Source: an uncultured Burkholderiales bacterium (lineage in GTDB: Bacteria > Pseudomonadota > Gammaproteobacteria > Burkholderiales > Burkholderiaceae_C). Taken from it: a stretch of DNA of 64,000 bases. Shown here piece by piece: positions 4,493 through 17,710 of this stretch. Both the position numbers and the translations under genes were made by a program. Under the pieces are notes generated by a model. The model did no database searches, was not told where the DNA came from, and saw only the letters and a program-made list of their open reading frames with translations. The DNA lies in contig CAITYM010000014.1 of the NCBI GenBank assembly GCA_903896615.1, forward strand, positions 1 through 64,000, read 5' to 3'. Each line of letters opens with the position of its first letter. Position 1 is the first letter of the stretch.

Positions 4493-5452
4493 TTACATCA
4501 AATATTTCGCGATCCAACTGTAGGCAGGAATACCTATGATTATGTTTAACGGAAACGTGATCGCTAAGGACGTACCCATATACAAAGCTGGATTAACTTC
4601 AGGCATAGCGTGACGTAGCACGGCAGGAACAGCAATGTACGATGCACTAGCGGCCAGTAACATCAACAAAATTGAATCTCCCAGGGGAATCTGAAGTAAA
4701 TGGCAAAAACCGAGGGCAATAAAGGCATGAATAGGTGGGGCTCCAAAAGAATAGAGGAAGGCAATGACGGGCTTTCCTTTTAACTCACCCATATTTTTAG
4801 CCGCAAGCAATCCCATATCCAACAAAAAAAAGGCCAACAACCCTTTGAAGAGGTCTATTGAAAAAGGTGCCATTACTTTGTGACCATACTCTCCAGATAC
4901 AAGTCCCACAACTAGAGATCCTAGTAAAAGAAGTTGCCCCCCATCTGTAAATGATTCATGAAGCACTGTTCCAATGGAGATGTGCTTTTGATGGGTCCCT
5001 TGGCGTTGTTGCCTTATTCTGTTAGCAAGGATAATGGCAATTACTATAGCGGGAGATTCCATCAAAGCCATCGCTGCTGCCATATGCCCGCCGTAAGTTA
5101 TTCCGCTCAAATCCAGCGCCTGTGTCGTTGTGATGAATGTAACCGCACTAATGGAGCCATAAGTTGCGGAAATAGCTGCGGCATCCAAAGGAGCAAGCTT
5201 TATTTTCAAGAGGTTATATCCTACTATTGGAATGACTATGGCTAAACCTATTGCAAGCCCAAGGCTCGTTCCAATATCAGGCGTGAAACCAGATTGGTTA
5301 AGGGCGAAACCACCCTTAAGTCCAAGGGCCATTAATAAGTAGAGGGAGAGAAATCTAGAAATAGGCTGTGGTATTTCTAAATTAGATTTCACCAAGCCTG
5401 CAAAAACCCCGAAAATGAAAAACAAAATGGATGGGTCTAATAGATTTGTCAT
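4493..5452 (-). CDS. sbtA: SbtA-type sodium-dependent bicarbonate permease
   Basis: A 319-residue inner-membrane protein with about ten hydrophobic segments. The N-terminal block FGVFAGLVKSNLEIP, followed by LSLYLLMALGLKGGFAL, is typical of the SbtA (formerly DUF897) family of sodium/bicarbonate symporters. The repeated half contains LLLGSLVVGLVSG and LLAFFLLDMGLLAA, consistent with the inverted-repeat fold. In cyanobacteria SbtA is controlled by the PII-like SbtB; no SbtB gene is next to it here, and a zinc-ribbon protein follows instead. It is divergent from a LysR regulator across 84 bases. The substrate is inferred from the family. Confidence 0.85.
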   Translation of the reverse strand: MTNLLDPSILFFIFGVFAGLVKSNLEIPQPISRFLSLYLLMALGLKGGFALNQSGFTPDIGTSLGLAIGLAIVIPIVGYNLLKIKLAPLDAAAISATYGSISAVTFITTTQALDLSGITYGGHMAAAMALMESPAIVIAIILANRIRQQRQGTHQKHISIGTVLHESFTDGGQLLLLGSLVVGLVSGEYGHKVMAPFSIDLFKGLLAFFLLDMGLLAAKNMGELKGKPVIAFLYSFGAPPIHAFIALGFCHLLQIPLGDSILLMLLAASASYIAVPAVLRHAMPEVNPALYMGTSLAITFPLNIIIGIPAYSWIAKYLM

Positions 5453-8520: not shown

Positions 8521-8856
8521 ATGAAAAGCTCAAATACGATTATCTGCATAGCCCTTGGATTAGTGTATTTATACCTATCCGGATGCGCTTCACACATGAT
8601 TGAAGTTCGACCCGGCTCAGTCAATGTCAACCTACAGAGCTCAAATAACGTGATCTCATGCAAGCCAATGGGCAAGGTAACTGTTAGCGTTATGACTGAA
8701 TTTGGTTTTTACACAAGAAGCGCTGATGATGTTGAGTCAAACTTAGTACAAATGGCAAGGAATAGTGCGATTGATAGTGGTGCTGATACTATAGTTAAAG
8801 AAGAAATGACTGAGTATGGACGCCGCACATTTGCAACCTATAAATGTCAACGCTAA
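8521..8856 (+). CDS. Small lipoprotein, DUF4156-like
   Basis: A 111-residue protein with a signal peptide and a lipobox LSGC at residues 19-22, so the mature protein is expected to be lipid-anchored at Cys22. The body has two further cysteines (in SCKPMG and YKCQR) and a conserved-looking block NLVQMARNSAIDSGADTI, which fits DUF4156 lipoproteins of unknown function. It is convergent with the small coiled-coil gene to its right. No Shine-Dalgarno sequence is evident. Confidence 0.7.
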   Translation: MKSSNTIICIALGLVYLYLSGCASHMIEVRPGSVNVNLQSSNNVISCKPMGKVTVSVMTEFGFYTRSADDVESNLVQMARNSAIDSGADTIVKEEMTEYGRRTFATYKCQR

Positions 8857-8870
8857 TGCAAGGTCATTTA

Positions 8871-9224
8871 TTAGAGATTTAATTTCTTCCTTAGATCTTC
8901 ACACATCAAGGCTTGATAGGCAAAGGACTGGACTTTCAAATCACTTTCCAATCGAATAGTTGCAATTGATTTAATATTTTCCTCATCGTTTGCACTTAAC
9001 TGCCTTTGATCCTCCTTAATTTGTTTGGTTAAATTCAGTATTTCTGTCTGATTACTAGCATTTTGTTTTTTGATTTGCTCCAGGTGAATATAAAAATATA
9101 GAGTACTAAAACTCAAAAGTAAACAAAACGCACCTAGTAGGCACTGAACTACTTTAAATCGTTGAGTAAAATTAAATTCACCAGATTGAATAGGTATATT
9201 GCAATTGCTAGGGATATTGTTCAT
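8871..9224 (-). CDS. Small single-span membrane protein with coiled coil
   Basis: Not recognised. The 117-residue protein has one hydrophobic segment at about residues 27-47. A hydrophilic, heptad-like stretch follows (about 48-85), and a short tail contains one Cys. The topology suggests an inner-membrane anchor with a periplasmic coiled coil. It lies about 100 bases downstream of the TraN-like pair on the same strand and could be the last gene of that operon, but no sequence motif ties it to conjugation. Confidence 0.55.
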   Translation of the reverse strand: MNNIPSNCNIPIQSGEFNFTQRFKVVQCLLGAFCLLLSFSTLYFYIHLEQIKKQNASNQTEILNLTKQIKEDQRQLSANDEENIKSIATIRLESDLKVQSFAYQALMCEDLRKKLNL

Positions 9225-9323
9225 GTTGTCTTTATCTTATTAACTAAACTAACTCAAAAATTTTTACCTGCGGGGTGAAAAAGTTGGGGAGAAACTATTG
9301 AACATATCAATAGTAGTAATTGA

Positions 9324-11078
9324 TCAATTTTTATTTGTATTAAGTGCTCTTGTAGAGGATGCAGCATCAGTCTGTGGCAAAGGGTAACTGAGCCCGTTAC
9401 CCATAGCCTGCTGATTGCTTTGAACAAGTTGGGGCACTATTGGCGAGTAATTTGCACGGATGTTTTGAGGAAGATTGCTCTGTGCTTGCTGAATTATTTG
9501 ACCGGTAAATTCAGAGAAATTAATCTTTGAAAAATCAAGTTTTGCAATCTCCAGACTACTCAGTCCCACACAACTTGAGAACTCCATTCCCAGTTGCGCT
9601 TTACCCTGCTGATTGATAATCTTACCCAACACCCCGTTAAATGAACAAAAATTGTCTTTATAGGATAAGCATTGACCCGTAATGGGAAGTGACTCACTAC
9701 AACTCTCACTCACGTACACCGAGAGGTCTTGACGTCTGTGCATGGCAAGTAAATTCTCGCTTGGGGTACATTGCTCAAGCGACTCAACCACACTTAAAGC
9801 CAGGGATCCTGCAAATACATAGGGATTAAAACTAACAAAGTAGCCATTTGTACTAGACGAGAGAAAATCCAACTGTGAAGTAGCTCCAAACAAACCGCTA
9901 GATGCCGGAGCACTTCCCATTCCCAAAGTAAAGCCAAAGGCCCCCAAACTGACCCCACTGGAAGCAAAGATCGTCGAATCTGCAAACCCTTGTGAATTAG
10001 TAATGACGTTAGCACTTTGAGTCAACGCACTAGCCATTCCCTGTGTATAGGCTCCACTCACATACATCGCATCAAAAACGTACGGGGAAGCAGTATCAAC
10101 CGCTGTTTCACCAATGTATTTAATAACACTAGCGCTGGAACCCAATAACATACCTAGTATTGCGGAGTTAGACTTTGCACCAGACTGAGTTGCACAACAA
10201 TTTTTAAGCCCTAACCAGCCCTTGGAACAACTCTCAGGCACCCCGGAAAATAGTAATTTTCCAATACAAGCCTCAGGATCGTTACCGGAACATCCTGAAT
10301 AGGTTTGCATCTCACTTGCTACCTCCATCGCTATGGCAGCTTGCGCAAACGCATTTGTACTCGGTAATGCAACAGCACTTCGGACTGAGCTCAAACTACT
10401 ACCCCCTAAAGTTAACGTAGAACTTTGAATGAGGGGTGCGTTACATACTGCTGGCAGTGAATTAGCAACAGTACTACTAGCATCAGCAGATTGATCTAAA
10501 CATGAATAAGTCTGTTGAAATTGAAGGCACTGATTGTTACCAACTCCTAAATATGTTTGATTACTACATACACTATTGATTAAGCTACAGGCAGAATTAC
10601 TCTGAAAAGATGTGCAACCGTTATCCACCTGATTACTCGTCGGGTTGGAAATCTCATTAACTAAGTTATCACTAACAACTGGGGCAGATACTACCTGTTC
10701 GATTCGTGGCATGCAAGAGTATTCAAAACTGTACTGCCAACAAGTTTGAGCTACGCTTAGTGCACCCAGAGGATTTGAGGCACTTGGCAAACCACCTCCT
10801 ACAAGCGGGACTCCAGACAAACAAATGAGCACGCCGGAAGTATCCAACTTACACGGCGTTAAATCGATACAAGTTTTAGAGGAAGGGACCGCGAAACAAA
10901 TATCAGTCTCCGGTAGTGCGGCAAATGTATTCTTACCTAGACTCAAGTAAAAAAAAGAAAATAGGAGAATTAGGAGCGAATACTTAGAAAAGCAATAAAA
11001 AAAGTGACGTAGCTTATTGATATATCCGGGAGTTAGGTAGAAGTTTGATAACTCTACAAAATTCAGTGCAAAAATCAT
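9324..11078 (-). CDS. TraN-like cysteine-rich exported protein
   Basis: A 584-residue protein. A hydrophobic segment followed by TFAA, about 45 residues in, looks like a late signal peptide. The mature part is rich in cysteines. Several stretches resemble TraN, the outer-membrane mating-pair stabilisation protein of F-type conjugation: CWQYSFEYSCMP, CSKGWLGLKNCC, and KDNFCSFNGVLGKIINQQGKAQLG followed by CVGLSSLEIAKLDFSKINFSEF. ATG 11078 lies 16 bases after the upstream gene's stop; a TTG at 11111 would overlap it. In conjugation TraN contacts the recipient surface. The rest of an F-type system is absent, so the present role is open. Confidence 0.72.
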   Translation of the reverse strand: MIFALNFVELSNFYLTPGYINKLRHFFYCFSKYSLLILLFSFFYLSLGKNTFAALPETDICFAVPSSKTCIDLTPCKLDTSGVLICLSGVPLVGGGLPSASNPLGALSVAQTCWQYSFEYSCMPRIEQVVSAPVVSDNLVNEISNPTSNQVDNGCTSFQSNSACSLINSVCSNQTYLGVGNNQCLQFQQTYSCLDQSADASSTVANSLPAVCNAPLIQSSTLTLGGSSLSSVRSAVALPSTNAFAQAAIAMEVASEMQTYSGCSGNDPEACIGKLLFSGVPESCSKGWLGLKNCCATQSGAKSNSAILGMLLGSSASVIKYIGETAVDTASPYVFDAMYVSGAYTQGMASALTQSANVITNSQGFADSTIFASSGVSLGAFGFTLGMGSAPASSGLFGATSQLDFLSSSTNGYFVSFNPYVFAGSLALSVVESLEQCTPSENLLAMHRRQDLSVYVSESCSESLPITGQCLSYKDNFCSFNGVLGKIINQQGKAQLGMEFSSCVGLSSLEIAKLDFSKINFSEFTGQIIQQAQSNLPQNIRANYSPIVPQLVQSNQQAMGNGLSYPLPQTDAASSTRALNTNKN

Positions 11079-11094
11079 TATTTTGAAATTCAAT

Positions 11095-13371
11095 CTAGGG
11101 TCGAAGCACAATCATCTCAGCTGCCTTTTGCTCCAAAGCTAGACACGCATCATTCCACTGAGTGCTGACTGCATACTGCAAACATCCTAAAGTCAACGGA
11201 TTAGTTCCATTAGCACAATACTGTATAACATGGACCGGAATTTGTAGCTGAGTGACACAAGAAAGCTGGCTTGAATTTGCTGAGGAAGACGGGGTTGAAC
11301 CAGTTGGACAAACGAAAGTAATATCAGGTGACTCCAATATTTTTTGTAAACACAATCCCTCATTTAAAGACTGCAAAGGAGGGCATACAAAGACCGGGAC
11401 GGCTTGTGTAATTATGTTTGTATGACCAACGCAATTCTGATCTTGCAAAATATCAGGGGTTACGCAGCTATAGATGACTTCTGCGGGAGAGCTAATAAAC
11501 TTCTGACAAATGTTGCCTAGCAATGTATATCCACTACTACAGTTATATGTAGTCACTGCGGGCAAACTTATAGTTGTGTTGGTAACGCAGGAATAACCCC
11601 CCGATTGATTGATCAAAGAGGTAACGACCTTATCACTTGGACCAATTGGGGCTAGGCTTGGACAGTTATAAGTTATCTGAGGAGCAGATGTAACAGTAAC
11701 TATACAAGTATCACTTGTTAGAACTCCGCTTAGACAGCTATAACCACCAATGGTCGCAATGCTTTGAATGGTTAACAAGCAAACGCCTGCTGTCAAAACA
11801 GTATTAGCTGGACACACTAATTGAGATACGGGTCCAAGAATACAAACAGATTTACCAGATGAAGTATCTGTATTTACATTAATTAACCCGTACAAGGAAG
11901 CAGTAAAGCTACAATTAAAATTATTTTGAATTCTGTAACATTGATACGGCATAGATGGTGGTTTGTAACTTGATAGCGTTCCAATACCGTTGCAACTAAG
12001 TTGTTGAATCTTAGTGGCTGATACCTGTGCGGTACATGTTTGGCCACTAAGCGCAGAGCCCACTGGGCAAGTGTAAGTTGCACTTGCAGGCGATGTAGAT
12101 ATTTGAACGCATTCGCCAATTATTAACTGAGAATTACTCGCGCAACTTAATTGCTGCAAAGCTATACTTGTGTTAGTTTGAATGCTCGTACAAACATCAC
12201 CAACGAGGGTTTGGCCCAAAGAGCAACTAGATCCAACTGCAACCGCAGGAACTGATACGGTTTGAATGCAATTATCTAATGATCTTATTGAACCGCCAGG
12301 ACATGTACTCAGTGTTGTAGTAGCTGGATTTATCTGAATGTTAGTCTGCACACATTGATTGGTGTTCTCGTTCAACTGTGAGCCCTGTGCGCAGGTGAGC
12401 TTAAGTGCTGCTGGGTTCAATAAATTTTGTTCACACTGCCCAGAAATCAGGGAAAATCCGGCCGGACAATTCTGGATACTATCTGCTAAGGATAGGCTAC
12501 TAACGATACATGTATTGCCCTGTAAGGTACCGCTCACACATGAACTTGTCGCAAGTGGAGGAGTCCAGTTTTCAGCAACAGTTACAGCTAAGGATACACT
12601 GCAATTTTCCAAACTCGCTGTCGTAGAAATCCAGCACGTATGGGTCGAGTATTTGGGTGCGGCAACTATTTTTGGACTATTTAAACCATCAGTTGAGCAC
12701 ACGGTCAAAGGCGCAGTTGTTTGAGTCAGTGTTTGGGCAGCCACATCGGAAAAAGTTTGTGTAGACGCTGCATTTGTTGAATTTAACAGTACTTGAGAGT
12801 GACCCTGTAAGCCAGTTGAGGATGGGTTTTGTGTTTCGTTAAAGCCAAACATACCTGCGCCACTGCCAAAGGTATTTGCGCAGTTGTTCAAATTATTAGA
12901 TGGATTAACTGAGTTTGACGGTGGAGCCGCCGCGATAACGTTTGATTGCAAGGAACTTGGGCGAACGCAATTCCCAGCCATGAAATTCACTGCCGCGCAG
13001 TACTCATCACTTGTTGAATCTCCTGTAGCTTGATAGGATGCGCAATTAAGCTGAGCTTGAAGGCCCAATGCGGTCAATCCTCCTTTGGGAGAAGTTGGAG
13101 CGAGCAAAGTGCTGTTTTGGGGCTTAGAGAAGTCTCCCAATTGTTTTGGAAGTGTTAAGACATTATTCGTAACACTCCAAGCAGAAGTGCTAACAGCAGA
13201 AGAATTGACCAACTGCGTAGAGGTTGTAGGTAGTAATTGATTGGCAAAGTCAATACCCTCAGTCTGCGCAGGATTTATGCTAGAGCCAACTATAACCACT
13301 GAAGTTTGTGCATAAAGTCCTATTGGATTAATCAAAATTAACGCTATAGCTAATGTAATTATTCGATGCAT
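11095..13371 (-). CDS. Large exported protein with cysteine repeats, TraN-related
   Basis: A 758-residue protein with a clear signal peptide (residues 1-21, ending in LYAQ). Near residues 105-140 a CASYQ...DEYCAAVNFMAGNCVRP block resembles the TraN N-terminal region. From about residue 250 to the end there are a dozen or more degenerate units of roughly 28-32 residues of the form C-P-x-G-x(3)-L-x-G-x-x-C followed by a Ser/Thr/Pro-rich spacer. This suggests a long disulfide-braced surface or periplasmic stalk. It is immediately upstream of the second TraN-like gene, so the pair could be a split or duplicated TraN. Divergent from the ATPase gene across 290 bases. Confidence 0.68.
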   Translation of the reverse strand: MHRIITLAIALILINPIGLYAQTSVVIVGSSINPAQTEGIDFANQLLPTTSTQLVNSSAVSTSAWSVTNNVLTLPKQLGDFSKPQNSTLLAPTSPKGGLTALGLQAQLNCASYQATGDSTSDEYCAAVNFMAGNCVRPSSLQSNVIAAAPPSNSVNPSNNLNNCANTFGSGAGMFGFNETQNPSSTGLQGHSQVLLNSTNAASTQTFSDVAAQTLTQTTAPLTVCSTDGLNSPKIVAAPKYSTHTCWISTTASLENCSVSLAVTVAENWTPPLATSSCVSGTLQGNTCIVSSLSLADSIQNCPAGFSLISGQCEQNLLNPAALKLTCAQGSQLNENTNQCVQTNIQINPATTTLSTCPGGSIRSLDNCIQTVSVPAVAVGSSCSLGQTLVGDVCTSIQTNTSIALQQLSCASNSQLIIGECVQISTSPASATYTCPVGSALSGQTCTAQVSATKIQQLSCNGIGTLSSYKPPSMPYQCYRIQNNFNCSFTASLYGLINVNTDTSSGKSVCILGPVSQLVCPANTVLTAGVCLLTIQSIATIGGYSCLSGVLTSDTCIVTVTSAPQITYNCPSLAPIGPSDKVVTSLINQSGGYSCVTNTTISLPAVTTYNCSSGYTLLGNICQKFISSPAEVIYSCVTPDILQDQNCVGHTNIITQAVPVFVCPPLQSLNEGLCLQKILESPDITFVCPTGSTPSSSANSSQLSCVTQLQIPVHVIQYCANGTNPLTLGCLQYAVSTQWNDACLALEQKAAEMIVLRP

Positions 13372-13661
13372 GGAATATTAAAAATGGTACAAAAGGTATG
13401 AAGCAGCCCCACTGATTCATAAATAACAACTACAGAAGATACATCTATGGGGCTTAAAAATACTTACTAACTCTTTCAACAATACAAATAATCATTCCAG
13501 GTAGCAATGGTTTGATATATGTGGATTTTGTCATTTACATGAGTCAGTAAATTAGCACTGCTACGCAAATTACTCACGTATCCATCCGTAAAGACATACA
13601 TTTAGAGCTTATAAAGATATCTGCTACTTCAGTCCACTTTCAAATAAAACGGATATAAATT
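13372..13661. other. Divergent promoter region of the TraN-like and ATPase operons
   Basis: About 290 AT-rich bases between divergently oriented genes. No reading frame is credible. I see no long palindrome or repeat that would identify a regulator. Confidence 0.5.
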
Positions 13662-15245
13662 TTGAGAGATTTTCAACTACCACTGTATCCAGAGTTAATA
13701 AACCTTAGCGGAGACGAAAGACGGTCGTTAATGTACATTTCTCGCAATCCAGAACATTTTGAAGTTGAATGTTCTATTCTCAGGGCACTGGCATTTGCTG
13801 TTGCTACTAAAAGCTCGGATGTTCACTTCAATGCCAAGCAGATTAACGGAGTACTCTCAGTTTTTATTAACATTAGAACTAAGGAAGGGTTCGCAAACTA
13901 CGCATTCAACAGTAATTCATCAGATGCCAAGCATTTTGAAACTAAGTTGCTTCAACTAACCAATAACACAGTCGGCGGAACGCAGGCTGAGATCATTTCT
14001 GCTCGGTTTAGCTTAGATTTTCCGCACTGGTGGGCTAAAACCCAAGGCTTAGAACTCAACTCAGGTGAATCCTATAAAACAGATGTACGGGTTCAATTTC
14101 AGAAAACATTCTCTGGATTTAGCATCGTATGTCGTATTTTAGATCAGCAGCGAACACCAAAATTAAGTGAGATGGGGCTTAGTCGCGCATTGGAAATTTT
14201 AATTCGAAGAATAATTCTAGAACCTTCAGGCCTAATATTAGTATCTGGACCCACAGGCTCAGGAAAAACGACTTTGTTAAATGCCATGCTATGCGAACTC
14301 AATGACGGCTCACGTTCAATTTTTACGATCGAAAATCCCGTTGAATTTAGACTAAAAGGTGACGGTCCAATTACCCAAGTACAAACTCACGGCCAAGTGA
14401 GTTTTGCATCTGGACTGAGAAGTGCACTAAGATCCGATCCCGATGTAATTCTCATTGGAGAAATCAGAGATTCTGAGACTATGGAAGTAGCACTTCAGGC
14501 AGCGCAAACAGGGCATCTTGTCCTAGCTACTATTCATGCAAGCGGGGCATCTCAAACTATCAGTCGTATGTTGGATCTCACAAAAGACAAATCAAGAGAC
14601 TCCTTTCGTGTATCGGATACCTTAAAACTAGTTCTTGCACAAAGATTAATTGATAAATACGTATCCGAACCTAAAGAACGTTTGCTCTCAAGCGCTGAAA
14701 AAGATTGGTTTGATTCAAACGCAATACCATTTCCAAAGAAGTTAACGGAAACAGTATCAACCACCAAAGTAGGTTTAAATGCGTTAGTTGAGGCTATTGA
14801 GATAGATCATTCGATTAAGAAAATCATACGCACCCCAAATTTCTTGATGGAAGACATTCATTCATTTTTAAAGAATCAACTTCAATACGAAACTCTTGCA
14901 ATGTGCGGATTGCGATATGTAGAGATGGGTGAGGCAAAGCTCTCGGACTGCCTTGTTAAGTTAGAAACCCTACAACTAGGGGATGAGCTCCCTCCTCTGA
15001 GGTTAAAGCTTGCGCTCAAGTACGGATTAAGTTTCAGTAAAGTGTCTTCTTTAATTGATGAATTTGTTGAATTAAAGAGCACACAATGTCATATTGAAGA
15101 GGTCGCAGATATACATTCAACTCCCGACTCACCGGACATACCAAAGGCCCTGAGTAACTTGCTACTAAAAGCGAGTTTAGAGCCTAAAGCAGCTGCGAAC
15201 AAGATACTTTTAATTCAACAAGACGACAATGACAGGAATAACTAA
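13662..15245 (+). CDS. PilT/DotB/TraJ-type secretion ATPase
   Basis: A 527-residue member of the GspE/PilT/VirB11 ATPase superfamily, closest by eye to PilT and the DotB/TraJ ATPases of IncI and Dot/Icm systems. Walker A is GPTGSGKT at residues 196-203. The Asp box is TIENPVEFR near 222-230, Walker B is VILIGE at 262-267, and the His box is ATIHASG around 289-295. About 180 residues after the ATPase core are unlike PilT and unidentified. The start TTG at 13662 includes the N-terminal domain; an ATG at 13734 is the alternative. It should be a cytoplasmic hexamer powering a membrane machine. The DsbA-like gene follows after 40 bases. Confidence 0.85.
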   Translation: MRDFQLPLYPELINLSGDERRSLMYISRNPEHFEVECSILRALAFAVATKSSDVHFNAKQINGVLSVFINIRTKEGFANYAFNSNSSDAKHFETKLLQLTNNTVGGTQAEIISARFSLDFPHWWAKTQGLELNSGESYKTDVRVQFQKTFSGFSIVCRILDQQRTPKLSEMGLSRALEILIRRIILEPSGLILVSGPTGSGKTTLLNAMLCELNDGSRSIFTIENPVEFRLKGDGPITQVQTHGQVSFASGLRSALRSDPDVILIGEIRDSETMEVALQAAQTGHLVLATIHASGASQTISRMLDLTKDKSRDSFRVSDTLKLVLAQRLIDKYVSEPKERLLSSAEKDWFDSNAIPFPKKLTETVSTTKVGLNALVEAIEIDHSIKKIIRTPNFLMEDIHSFLKNQLQYETLAMCGLRYVEMGEAKLSDCLVKLETLQLGDELPPLRLKLALKYGLSFSKVSSLIDEFVELKSTQCHIEEVADIHSTPDSPDIPKALSNLLLKASLEPKAAANKILLIQQDDNDRNN

Positions 15246-15285
15246 ATTAACAATCACACAAAAACCGGTTTTCTGGAGATAAACA

Positions 15286-16002
15286 ATGCGCAACCTAAAC
15301 TCTGTTAATTGCTACTTCAAACGAAGTTTTATTGCGTCATGTTTCTTTTTCACAATTAGAGCGGCTTCTCAACCCTTTAAAAATCGAATTGAGACTTTTA
15401 GGGAGCATATTGATTCACCTATTCAAAATCAACTAACCACACAGAATCAACAAATTAAGCCTTTCCTTCAAGTTCCTACTATCGCCTCAGAGGAAAATAC
15501 AGTTCGTGTATTTTTTAGCCCCAATTGTCCCTACTCAGCTAGCTATTTTGATTTTTTTGTGAACTTAGCAAACACACTACCCCAAGAAATAAGGTATGAG
15601 CTCTCAGCCCTACCCAATACAAAAGACAGTGCAGCTTATGCATTGACTTACTTAGCTGTTAGAAGATTCTATCCAAATAACTTGAAACAATTTGTCCAAA
15701 ATAGCTTTAAGCTCTTTCAAAATCAAGGACTAAGTAGCAAAAACTGGTCAGTCCTCCAACGATTGGGCACTATGAGCCGTATACCGGGTAATTTACCTGC
15801 CTTTGTTCTATTCAACAAAAGCATATTAAGCAAAGACTTGACTGAATTGATTGATCTTTGTAGGTCGCTCAGAGTAACTAACACCCCTTGCGTAGCCGTT
15901 GACGGTACATATACAGTTACACCTGAGTTTGTTCCGGGTGCAGATCCAGGGATGTTCAATCAACTTGTGAACAGCATTATTTCCATGTCTATTGGCGCGT
16001 AG
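15286..16002 (+). CDS. DsbA-like thioredoxin-fold protein with single active-site Cys
   Basis: A 238-residue protein with a hydrophobic N-terminal segment (about residues 14-26) that may be a signal peptide or anchor. FFSPNCPYS at residues 77-84 aligns with the DsbA CxxC site, but the second Cys is Ser, giving CPYS. Near the C-terminus NTPCVAVDG carries the cis-Pro region expected of the fold, plus an extra Cys. The monothiol site argues for an isomerase, chaperone or glutathione-linked role rather than a standard oxidase. A GGAGAT ribosome site precedes the ATG. Its place behind the ATPase and near Cys-rich TraN-like proteins suggests it helps fold them (inference). Confidence 0.68.
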   Translation: MRNLNSVNCYFKRSFIASCFFFTIRAASQPFKNRIETFREHIDSPIQNQLTTQNQQIKPFLQVPTIASEENTVRVFFSPNCPYSASYFDFFVNLANTLPQEIRYELSALPNTKDSAAYALTYLAVRRFYPNNLKQFVQNSFKLFQNQGLSSKNWSVLQRLGTMSRIPGNLPAFVLFNKSILSKDLTELIDLCRSLRVTNTPCVAVDGTYTVTPEFVPGADPGMFNQLVNSIISMSIGA

Positions 16003-16033: not shown

Positions 16034-17152
16034 TCAATTCATCGATTTTGCAAACCACATCACAAAGGGAACTGTTCCCATTGCAGCAGCCGTAGAAACG
16101 GATACTGCAATCGTAATCTCTGATTGTGAAACTCGGTAGCGCTGGGCAAATAAAAATACGTTCGCTCCAATCGGCATACTCGCAGCAAGCACCATGACGG
16201 ACAATGCCAAGCCCTGCACACCAACCCAGTGACCAATACAAAGTACGATGATGGGGTTAGCAATATTTTTTACAAAAGTAAGCGTCCCAACTACTCGCCA
16301 TCTAGATTGAGTATGGGTAGCGTTTAATCGATTAACCATAACCGCATCCAATGCGGCTGAAGCCTGAGAGTCTGAAACTCCGACATTAACGCCTGATCCG
16401 GTTTCTTTGGCGTTAGTTGACATATACAGGCTTATACCAACCAACATTAAAGCAAGCGGCGAGAAAGCCAATCCCACCCACACAATGGGTTGCTCGATGA
16501 GTTGAGGTAAATGCCATCCAAAATAGGAAAAAATGATTCCCCCAATAATTGGCAATGGAACTGGATGAAGCGTAGCGTTACGAAGTGCCTTTGCGACAGT
16601 GCTCCATGTATTGAGTGAATCTATATCGCCTACATTTAAACCAGATGCTTGCTCCCTTAAGAGCGATAACTCCAGGACTACAGTTGCAGTGGTTAACAAA
16701 ATAATCGCATGAACTGAAATTAAAGTAAATAAATAGACCAAGCCTGGAGCCCCGTATACCAGCCCAATTAAGGGGACCCCAATCATTGTTGTATTGCTGT
16801 ACGTACTTGCCAATCCAAGAACAGTGCTCCGACGACTAAAACCTAGTAATGCAATAACTAATGAAAAAATTGACAATGCTACAAAGAAATAAAGCAAAAT
16901 AGGTTGAATATTTAGCTCCTCTAAATGCACTTCACTCATGGTGTGAAAAAGAAGCGATGGAGCTAGTACATTAAATGTAAGTCGTGTCAGGTCATTGGCT
17001 CCTAATTCAGTGACGACCCTTAATTTTGCAACCCAAAAGCCAAGACTAATAAGCAAGGCCACAGGCATTAGAGACGTAAATAGAGGTAGCACTTTAGGGA
17101 CCAGGATTATAAATATTAAGTTCAATGGTGGCAGATATTGAACAACCGTCAA
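16034..17152 (-). CDS. AEC-family permease (auxin efflux carrier / MdcF type)
   Basis: A 372-residue inner-membrane protein with about ten hydrophobic segments. Family features include the early LISLGFWVAKLRVV, LTRLTFNVLAPSLLFHTM, the pore-like STYSNTTMIGVPLIGLVYG, and the C-terminal GLALSVMVLAASMPIGANVFLFAQRY. Members export or import small organic acids; the substrate is not clear. A hydrophilic stretch of about 35 residues in the middle is the usual cytoplasmic loop. The start is TTG 17152; an ATG at 17068 would remove the first hydrophobic residues. It lies 21 bases downstream of msrA on the same strand. Confidence 0.85.
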   Translation of the reverse strand: MTVVQYLPPLNLIFIILVPKVLPLFTSLMPVALLISLGFWVAKLRVVTELGANDLTRLTFNVLAPSLLFHTMSEVHLEELNIQPILLYFFVALSIFSLVIALLGFSRRSTVLGLASTYSNTTMIGVPLIGLVYGAPGLVYLFTLISVHAIILLTTATVVLELSLLREQASGLNVGDIDSLNTWSTVAKALRNATLHPVPLPIIGGIIFSYFGWHLPQLIEQPIVWVGLAFSPLALMLVGISLYMSTNAKETGSGVNVGVSDSQASAALDAVMVNRLNATHTQSRWRVVGTLTFVKNIANPIIVLCIGHWVGVQGLALSVMVLAASMPIGANVFLFAQRYRVSQSEITIAVSVSTAAAMGTVPFVMWFAKSMN

Positions 17153-17173
17153 ATTCGAAAAGCCACCTCGCGC

Positions 17174-17710
17174 TTATGATTTCATCCAATTTGAAAAACT
17201 TTTTCGAAACTTTGCGACTTTAGGAGCAACCACGTATGAGCAATATCCTTGCTCAGGATTATTCACAAAATAATTTTGATGATAACTCTCTGCAGCAGAG
17301 TAATTCTCTAGGGGCTTTACTTCGGTGACGATAGGTTGATCAAATATTTTTTGCGCAGTGAGGCTGTTTATTAAAGTCCTCGCTGTATTGGCTTGATCAT
17401 CATTCTCGTAATAAATGCCACTGCGGTACTGAGTTCCTACATCATTGCCCTGCTGATTCAAAGTTGTAGGGTCGTGAATTGCAAAAAATATACTCAAGAT
17501 ATCTTTAAGTTGAATAATTTTTGTATCGAATTGAATTCGAAGTACTTCAACATGTCCTGTTCTTCCAGAGCAAACCTGCTCGTAGGTTGGCCTTAAGGTC
17601 TGACCATTACTGTACCCAGACTCAACGCGTTCTACGCCTTTGACTAATTCAAAAACAGCTTCAACGCACCAAAAGCATCCCCCACCAACCGTTATTGTTT
17701 CAATAGACAT
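17174..17710 (-). CDS. msrA: Peptide methionine sulfoxide reductase A
   Basis: Reduces methionine-S-sulfoxide in oxidised proteins. The catalytic motif GCFWC is at residues 11-15 with Cys12 as nucleophile, followed by VESGYSNG and, further on, FFAIHDPTTLNQQGNDVGTQYRSGIYY. The length of 178 residues is normal. A dyad AATGACTCTCATT about 65 bases upstream could be regulatory, but it is not a good match to a known box. Confidence 0.95.
   Translation of the reverse strand: MSIETITVGGGCFWCVEAVFELVKGVERVESGYSNGQTLRPTYEQVCSGRTGHVEVLRIQFDTKIIQLKDILSIFFAIHDPTTLNQQGNDVGTQYRSGIYYENDDQANTARTLINSLTAQKIFDQPIVTEVKPLENYSAAESYHQNYFVNNPEQGYCSYVVAPKVAKFRKSFSNWMKS

What the first reader, a model, noticed from the sequence alone, without database searches (positions are those of the whole stretch)
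8871..16002. Orphan TraN / PilT-type ATPase / DsbA-like island
Two Cys-rich TraN-like exported proteins (minus strand) face a DotB/PilT-type ATPase and a DsbA-like protein (plus strand) across one 290-base promoter region. TraN belongs to F-type mating-pair formation, while the ATPase resembles the IncI/Dot type. Relaxase, coupling protein, VirB4, secretin and pilin genes are all absent from the window. Seen: the motifs and arrangement. Inferred: a domesticated adhesion, uptake or secretion device, or an eroded conjugative element whose other parts lie elsewhere.
Basis: partly seen in the sequence, partly recalled or inferred. Interest (0 to 1): 0.72.

Follow-up and report, generated by a model that had tools for sequence, protein, structure and literature searches.

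The report
Scattered chromosomal F-type secretion system
The five genes are one piece of a bacterial DNA-transfer-like machine whose other pieces sit elsewhere in the same genome, seemingly kept for the cell's own use rather than for spreading a plasmid.

Summary
The island is real but not orphan. It holds a 117-aa membrane protein, one true TraN, a Cys-rich repeat partner, a GspE/PilB-like ATPase and a DsbA-like protein with CxxS. Five plasmid stretches from Burkholderiales and Pseudomonas show the same divergent module, four of them beside tra genes, so nothing is mixed. The window's genome carries the rest of an F-type T4SS in two further loci with housekeeping flanks, shared by four genomes of the genus as far as contigs reach. 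The window's site is shared by two; two other species have it without the island. A second lineage is split at other breakpoints. In a close pair 23 of 23 genes have dN/dS 0.01-0.35, and the pilin candidate is 90-98% identical among four species. MobF occurs in 1 of 6 genomes; a divergent coupling protein exists in two. I read it as a domesticated, dispersed F-type T4SS for cell contact; its substrate is unknown. No structure could be predicted.

The parts
8871..9224 (-). 117-aa protein with one membrane segment and a coiled-coil-like rest (by eye); counterpart of the small gene after traN in plasmids
   Evidence: ORF; 33-36% to the G026 copy; similar gene at the same place in pBMUL01, Pandoraea, Massilia and G064
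9324..11111 (-). traN, F-type mating-pair stabilisation protein; the only TraN match in the genome; true start probably downstream of the TTG
   Evidence: PF06986 1.2e-19; NF009018 6e-87, below cut-off; single match in own genome; 57% to G026
11095..13371 (-). exported Cys-rich repeat protein (758 aa, 42 Cys, about 16 C-x-G-x-C units), partner of TraN
   Evidence: homologues of 379-1130 aa in plasmids and relatives
13372..13661 (.). 290-base divergent intergenic region; one promoter-like match on the minus strand, no more than chance for the region scanned
13662..15245 (+). GspE/PilB/PilT-like (T2SSE) motor ATPase, 527 aa
   Evidence: T2SSE 1.8e-62; 36-51% to the 14 best plasmid copies
15286..16002 (+). 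exported DsbA-like protein with CxxS (CPYS) in place of CxxC, next to the ATPase in every locus read
8521..8856 (+). flank: DUF4156 gene, conserved in G026, G062 and G063
   Evidence: PF13698 2.7e-9
16034..17710 (-). flank: AEC-type transporter and MsrA genes (labels by eye), conserved in G026, G062 and G063

Best explanation
The island is the contact module (locus III) of an F-type T4SS split into three loci with housekeeping flanks. Locus I encodes DsbC, lytic transglycosylase, TraW, U, TrbC, L, E, K and B; locus II encodes TraV, a TraA-like pilin, TraC, signal peptidase, TraF, H and G; locus III encodes TraN, the Cys-rich partner, the motor ATPase and the DsbA-like protein. Inferred working: locus I and II proteins build the envelope channel and a pilus; TraC and the GspE/PilB-like ATPase supply energy (the latter where VirB11 works in other T4SSs); TraN and the repeat protein sit on the outer face and grip a partner cell or surface; DsbC and the CxxS protein help fold these Cys-rich proteins. 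Without MobF in 5 of 6 genomes and fixed in the chromosome, it most likely makes a retractable contact or adhesion organelle for its host. Shown: gene content, split, shared sites, constraint. Inferred: chromosomal location (from flanks), pilus, contact function, ATPase role.
For: TraH and TraC in 6 of 6 module-bearing genomes; TraU in 8 of 8 searched. Locus I has the bactofilin-like side in 4 of 4 type A genomes and the phasin-like side in 3 of 3 readable ones; locus II has the patatin side in 4 of 4, on to ggt-dnaG-rpoD in the 3 readable, and the helicase side in 2 of 3 readable. Window site: DUF4156-island-AEC-MsrA in G000 and G026, DUF4156-peptidase S51-AEC-MsrA in G062 and G063. 7 of 10 loci I/II genes compared follow the order of 3 of 4 housekeeping neighbours, G061 furthest. 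ATPase match over 443 or more of 527 residues in 3 of 37 genus genomes, the same 3 of 37 with TraH; 1 in 7,770 if genomes were independent, which they are not. dN/dS 0.012-0.353 in 23 of 23 genes, G062-G063; pN below pS in 18 of 18, G000-G026. Pilin candidate 74-80 of 82 identical. MobF in 1 of 6. T4SSs without VirD4 proposed to make adhesive pili are known (PMC12857230 section 20).
Against: A T4CP-superfamily gene next to a weakly Replic_Relax-like gene occurs at one site in G061 and G084, so a DNA role is open. Own genome has MobF and T4CP on a short contig with a second tra set. Own TraB was not seen, and contig ends cut own TraC, TraG and TraK; DsbC was not found in own locus I. In G061 the module is at another site. 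G012's ATPase/Dsb belong to the other lineage, and its locus II has other genes on the helicase side. Synonymous sites are mostly saturated in G000-G026. LTG, TraV and TraF do not follow the housekeeping order, and neither does one of the four housekeeping genes. The pilin candidate hits no Pfam or NCBIfam family. Draft genomes only (five of the six are MAGs by title); no expression data.
Confidence: 0.68

Rival explanations
1. A chromosomal DNA-exchange machine. The dispersed T4SS exports or imports host DNA, with a divergent coupling protein and its neighbour as the DNA-handling part, like the gonococcal GGI or archaeal Ced.
For: T4CP-superfamily protein (PF12696 38, PF02534 37, PF10412 33 bits) in G061 and a 73% identical one in G084, same flanking genes; GGI is an F-type system that secretes ssDNA (PMC4207684 passages); Ced is a domesticated conjugation system (PMC9905601 passages).
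Against: PF10412 rang in none of G026, G012, G062, G063 at E 0.001; the pair is known from two of the 8 genomes searched with PF10412, so its link to the T4SS is unproven; MobF missing in 5 of 6; other relaxase families not searched.
Confidence: 0.2
2. An ordinary integrated F-type element broken up by rearrangement and still partly mobile or decaying.
For: Apparently complete plasmid-like element in the congener G064; sporadic presence, TraH in 8 of 84 genus genomes; one module beside an integrase and tRNA-Val in G012.
Against: Shared sites and order of loci I and II in four genomes at 70-85% TraC/TraU/TraH identity, open frames, low dN/dS; no integrase recognised by eye among the ORFs read beside loci I-III of G000, G026 and G061 (no family search for it there).
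Confidence: 0.15
3. Protein secretion: a T4SS without a usual coupling protein exports proteins that first reach the periplasm, as in Ptl.
For: T4SSs lacking VirD4 that secrete proteins in two steps are known (PMC12857230 section 20).
Against: No candidate effector gene noticed beside the loci (none was searched for); the pilin candidate and TraN are kept, pointing to contact rather than release.
Confidence: 0.1
4. SGI1-like: the island supplies TraN and partners to a helper plasmid's T4SS.
For: SGI1 reshapes the mating apparatus of IncC plasmids (PMC5389848, search listing); own genome has a second tra set, and the window's TraN is the only TraN match in that genome.
Against: The same genome has loci I and II, which co-occur with the module; no int, xis or oriT recognised at the island.
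Confidence: 0.06

Closest known systems
Plasmids pBMUL01, pKF715B, and those of Pandoraea commovens, Herbaspirillum huttiense, Massilia sp. H6
   Same: Same divergent order: small gene, traN, partner gene, facing ATPase and Dsb (in pKF715B by position, with a transglycosylase gene before the ATPase)
   Different: On plasmids; four of the five stretches have tra genes nearby (not Massilia). MobF is annotated or typed in all five; a T4CP is seen in the Massilia, Herbaspirillum and Pandoraea stretches. They also have g182- and Sel1/TPR-type genes that the window lacks
GGI-like F-type T4SS (Neisseria and others)
   Same: Often chromosomal F-type machinery with TraN, TraC, TraH, TraU; one such system was noted without an identifiable relaxase
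   Different: GGI-like systems form a conserved unit, mostly with TraI and TraD (PMC4207684 passages); this one is split over three or more loci
Rickettsiales rvh T4SS
   Same: Scattered chromosomal gene clusters, found in all seven Rickettsiales families (PMC10732058 passages)
   Different: rvh is P-type and lacks the VirB5 minor pilin; this is F-type
Bartonella Trw
   Same: T4SS without VirD4, proposed to work as adhesive pili (PMC12857230 section 20)
   Different: Related to R388 Trw, not F; multiple copies of pilus genes there
Archaeal Ced/Ted
   Same: Conjugation machinery domesticated on the chromosome (PMC9905601 passages)
   Different: Archaeal, few genes, known DNA import

Membership tests
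F-type (MPF_F) T4SS | TraC (VirB4 of F type) | tested here: met
   PF11130 in 6 of 6 genomes; TIGR02746 405 bits for G026's copy, below its cut-off of 567
F-type (MPF_F) T4SS | F-specific TraH, TraU, TraN, TrbC, TraW, TraF, TraG | tested here: met
   Own genome: TraH, TraU, TraN, TrbC PF09673, others by BLAST; TraG only as a 382-aa part at a contig end
F-type (MPF_F) T4SS | Core complex TraB, TraK, TraV and TraE | tested here: met
   G026, G012, G061 have all four (Pfam for three of them); own genome: TraE and TraV seen, TraK cut at a contig end, TraB not seen
F-type (MPF_F) T4SS | TraA-like pilin | tested here: inconclusive
   Leader plus two hydrophobic segments between TraV and TraC; the gene at that place in pKF715B is annotated TraA; no Pfam or NCBIfam hit
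F-type (MPF_F) T4SS | No VirB11-type ATPase (as stated for F, PMC12857230 passage) | tested here: not met
   PilT/VirB11-superfamily ATPase in the module here and in related plasmids
Self-transmissible conjugative element | Relaxase | tested here: not met
   MobF PF08751 in 1 of 6 genomes, on a separate short contig; MOBH, P, Q, C and others not searched
Self-transmissible conjugative element | Coupling protein | tested here: inconclusive
   PF10412 in 4 of 8 genomes: strong in G000 (second set) and G064, weak in G061 and G084, where it is a divergent T4CP-like protein
Self-transmissible conjugative element | Contiguous, bounded by an integrase or on a plasmid | tested here: not met
   Three loci on different contigs with housekeeping flanks; G026's three loci lie on contigs C70, C122 and C133
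Type IV pilus or T2SS | PilC/GspF platform and pilins beside the ATPase | tested here: not met
   PF00482 in own genome only on C15, beside another ATPase
DotB/IncI (MPF_I) ATPase | Best match to DotB or TraJ models | tested here: not met
   GspE 209, PilB 185, PilT 174 bits over TraJ 118 and DotB 98
DsbA oxidoreductase | CxxC active site | tested here: not met
   CxxS in 11 of 11 module proteins examined, plasmids included

The most novel reading that the evidence does not exclude
Bacteria have turned an F-type conjugation machine into a dispersed chromosomal DNA-exchange organelle, a bacterial counterpart of archaeal Ced, on at least two separate occasions in one Burkholderiales genus; a motor ATPase of the PilT/VirB11 superfamily drives its pilus, and a divergent coupling protein with its neighbour handles host DNA.
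Probability: 0.1. Interest if true: 0.88.

Novelty: new variant of a known kind. Interest (0 to 1): 0.62.

Why it matters
F-type T4SSs are described as units on plasmids or islands. A relaxase-poor one, cut into separate loci with housekeeping flanks and shared across species, with two different cut patterns, would show that the machine pays its way without spreading a mobile element. It also shows an ATPase of the PilT/VirB11 superfamily next to TraN in all five plasmid stretches read that carry traN, although VirB11 is said not to be required by F (PMC12857230 passage); whether it powers pilus retraction or assembly is directly testable by deletion in a P. putida plasmid.

Tried and rejected
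Rejected: a mix of F-type TraN and Dot-type ATPase (plasmids carry this module); type IV pilus locus (no platform gene beside it; PilC is elsewhere with its own ATPase); phage or defence origin (PHROGs: ATPase core only; PADLOC: weak ATPase-core matches only; viral contigs searched with the ATPase alignment: 98 pattern matches, none confirmed); chance (gene order shared with named plasmids).

Led nowhere: promoter and terminator scan, no more than shuffles; repeats at the island's ends, none convincing; near match of 10 kb of G064's element in plasmids, none; structure prediction, never accepted because the queue was full, so no fold comparison was made. A label of mine, 'pilin' for the exported gene between TrbC and TraL and in the notes, was wrong: that protein is not pilin-like. 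The likely pilin is 'h33k' of those tables. In-print check: no paper on a dispersed F-type T4SS, or on this ATPase in F-type plasmids, was seen among the top rows listed by searches (not all matching papers are listed); the library lacks most subscription journals.
Full report
What is there. Five open genes lie at 8871-16002. TraN is firm (PF06986 1.2e-19; NF009018 6e-87 but below its equivalog cut-off). The neighbour called a second TraN is a different protein: 758 aa, 42 Cys, no family hit, with about 16 short C-x-G-x-C units. The ATPase is T2SSE and closer to GspE/PilB and PilT than to TraJ or DotB. The DsbA-like protein has CPYS, and 11 of 11 module proteins examined, plasmids included, have CxxS; the DsbC of the T4SS loci keeps CPYC or CPFC in 9 of 9 examined.

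Where the module comes from. A protein search of 72,556 plasmids found the ATPase at up to 51% identity (capped at 5,000 records, 25 listed) and the Dsb protein in 43 records. Of six plasmid stretches read, five (Massilia H6, pBMUL01, Herbaspirillum, Pandoraea, pKF715B) show small gene-traN-partner on one strand facing ATPase-Dsb. Four of these five have tra genes nearby; the Massilia stretch does not. In Simplicispira the ATPase and Dsb are there without traN in the 24.6 kb read. pBMUL01 and pKF715B are typed MOBF and MPF_F by PLSDB. The plasmids have two more genes, g182- and Sel1- or TPR-type, between the partner and the divergent region; the window lacks them, and I did not search for them elsewhere in the genome.

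The rest of the machine is in the same genome. The six genomes known to carry the module (own G000, G026, G012, G061, G062, G063) all have TraH and TraC, and all have TraU; with G064 and G084 that is 8 of 8. In G000, G026, G012 and G061 (type A) these genes form two loci. Locus II runs from TraV to TraG. On the TraV side lies a patatin-like lipoprotein gene in 4 of 4 (Pfam for three; by eye in G061), followed by ggt, dnaG and rpoD in the 3 whose contigs reach that far (ggt by Pfam; dnaG and rpoD by eye). On the TraG side lies a DEAD-box helicase (by eye) in G026 and G061; G012 has other genes and the G000 contig ends. Locus I runs from DsbC to TraB, with a bactofilin-like gene on one side in 4 of 4 and a phasin-like gene on the other in 3 of 3 readable (labels by eye). 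Contig ends cut TraC, TraG and TraK in G000, its TraB was not seen, and no DsbC was found in its locus I.

The window's site. In G000 and G026 the module lies between DUF4156 and the AEC-MsrA pair. G062 and G063 have the same neighbourhood with a peptidase S51-like gene in its place. In G061 the module is elsewhere.

A second lineage. G062 and G063 (type B) are also split, but differently: TraG-H-F-LepB facing DsbC to TraL; TraE to TraC followed by the partner (1130 aa), g182 and TraN; and Sel1 facing ATPase-Dsb, in G062 beside flagellar genes (by eye) (TraN seen in G063 only, the G062 contig ends before it). The uncut order is seen in the congener G064 with MobF and T4CP. The different breakpoints argue for separate splitting, and the ATPase tree puts type A with Massilia and Herbaspirillum (78/76) and type B with G064 (97/97), on long branches; a shared ancestor that was split and then reshuffled is not excluded. 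G012 has type A loci I and II but a type B ATPase-Dsb-Sel1 near an integrase and tRNA-Val.

Distribution. TraH is in 8 of 84 genus genomes; three of these handles (G079, G090, G092) are G063, G061 and G062 again by identical coordinates. Among the 37 genus genomes searched with the ATPase, 3 have a match over 443 or more of its 527 residues, and these are the 3 of 37 with TraH. A scan of 84,980 species genomes with the first Dsb alignment (three sequences) confirmed 5 loci out of 88 pattern matches, all in uncultured Burkholderiales MAGs; it uses short exact patterns and will miss divergent copies. All five genomes are T4SS-positive. Module presence in G084 was not tested.

Selection. Between G062 and G063, 23 of 23 genes compared have dN/dS of 0.012-0.353: TraE, TraC and TraH lowest; Sel1, h30k, g182 and the NWPKVV protein highest. 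Between G000 and G026 most synonymous sites are saturated; 18 of 18 genes have pN (0.11-0.42) below pS (0.67-0.88). Plasmid genes can also be under such constraint, so this argues against decay rather than against mobility. Of ten loci I/II genes compared, seven follow the housekeeping order with G061 furthest; LTG, TraV and TraF do not, and of the four housekeeping genes the TMEM165-like one hardly does. The TraU tree also sets G061 outside, at 75/89 support.

Pilus. The small gene between TraV and TraC has a leader-like segment and two hydrophobic segments; the gene at that place in pKF715B is annotated TraA. Its mature part, cut at a site I judged by eye, is 74-80 of 82 identical among the four type A genomes, while RnhA and MoaA are 81-93% and 68-77%. 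The surface partner of TraN is 38-45% identical among the three type A genomes in which it was found.

DNA handling. MobF was found in 1 of 6 genomes, on a 5,960-base contig of G000 with a T4CP. G000 also has a second tra set on short contigs, 95% identical in TraU to a second set in G063; with 4.2% estimated contamination it may not belong to this genome. The T4CP family PF10412 rang in 4 of 8 genomes. The two weak ones, G061 and G084, proved to be real T4CP-superfamily proteins, 73% identical, with the same flanking efflux-type operon (by eye), each followed by a ~260-aa gene; the G061 neighbour weakly matches Replic_Relax (E 8e-4, below cut-off), the G084 one does not. This goes against a flat claim of no coupling protein and keeps DNA exchange open.

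Reading. In F-like systems TraN is modelled with a base in the outer membrane and a tip that sets recipient specificity (PMC13104618 passages). VirB11 is needed by most Gram-negative T4SSs but not by F (PMC12857230 passage), so the ATPase here is notable. T4SSs without VirD4 are thought to serve as adhesive pili, protein exporters or DNA importers (PMC12857230 section 20). I favour a host-owned contact pilus; DNA exchange is the main rival. Confidence that the window module belongs to a dispersed F-type T4SS is about 0.9; that contact is its main job, about 0.5; the stated 0.68 covers the whole.

Limits. No structures, expression data or closed genome of a type A species.

Noticed in passing
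L134:7872-10189 (G061) and L135:6974-9663 (G084): T4CP-superfamily gene with a ~260-aa neighbour (weakly Replic_Relax-like in G061), beside an efflux-type operon; 73% identical between two genomes with different T4SS lineages.
   Followed up: partly
L064, L086, L063 (own genome, contigs C33, C3, C77): A second F-type tra set with MobF and T4CP on short contigs, 95% identical in TraU to a second set in G063 (L071); may be a plasmid or contamination.
   Followed up: partly
L028:1-10200 (G012): Type B Sel1/ATPase/Dsb genes about 6 kb from an integrase gene next to tRNA-Val, in a genome whose other T4SS loci are type A.
   Followed up: partly
window:11095-13371; L067:346-3738; L072:5166-8558: The TraN partner has 42-43 Cys in three type A genomes and 72 in two type B genomes, against 17-27 in four plasmid-type copies; the Herbaspirillum plasmid copy has 42.
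   Followed up: partly
L127:6230-7456; L128:8131-9357: Peptidase S51-like (cyanophycinase-like by eye) gene occupies the island's place between DUF4156 and AEC in G062 and G063.
   Followed up: yes
L083:9081-9575, L068:10746-11309 and homologues: Conserved exported protein with a NWPKVV-like motif between TrbC and TraL; the copies scanned had no family hit; fast-evolving (29-42% among type A genomes).
   Followed up: partly
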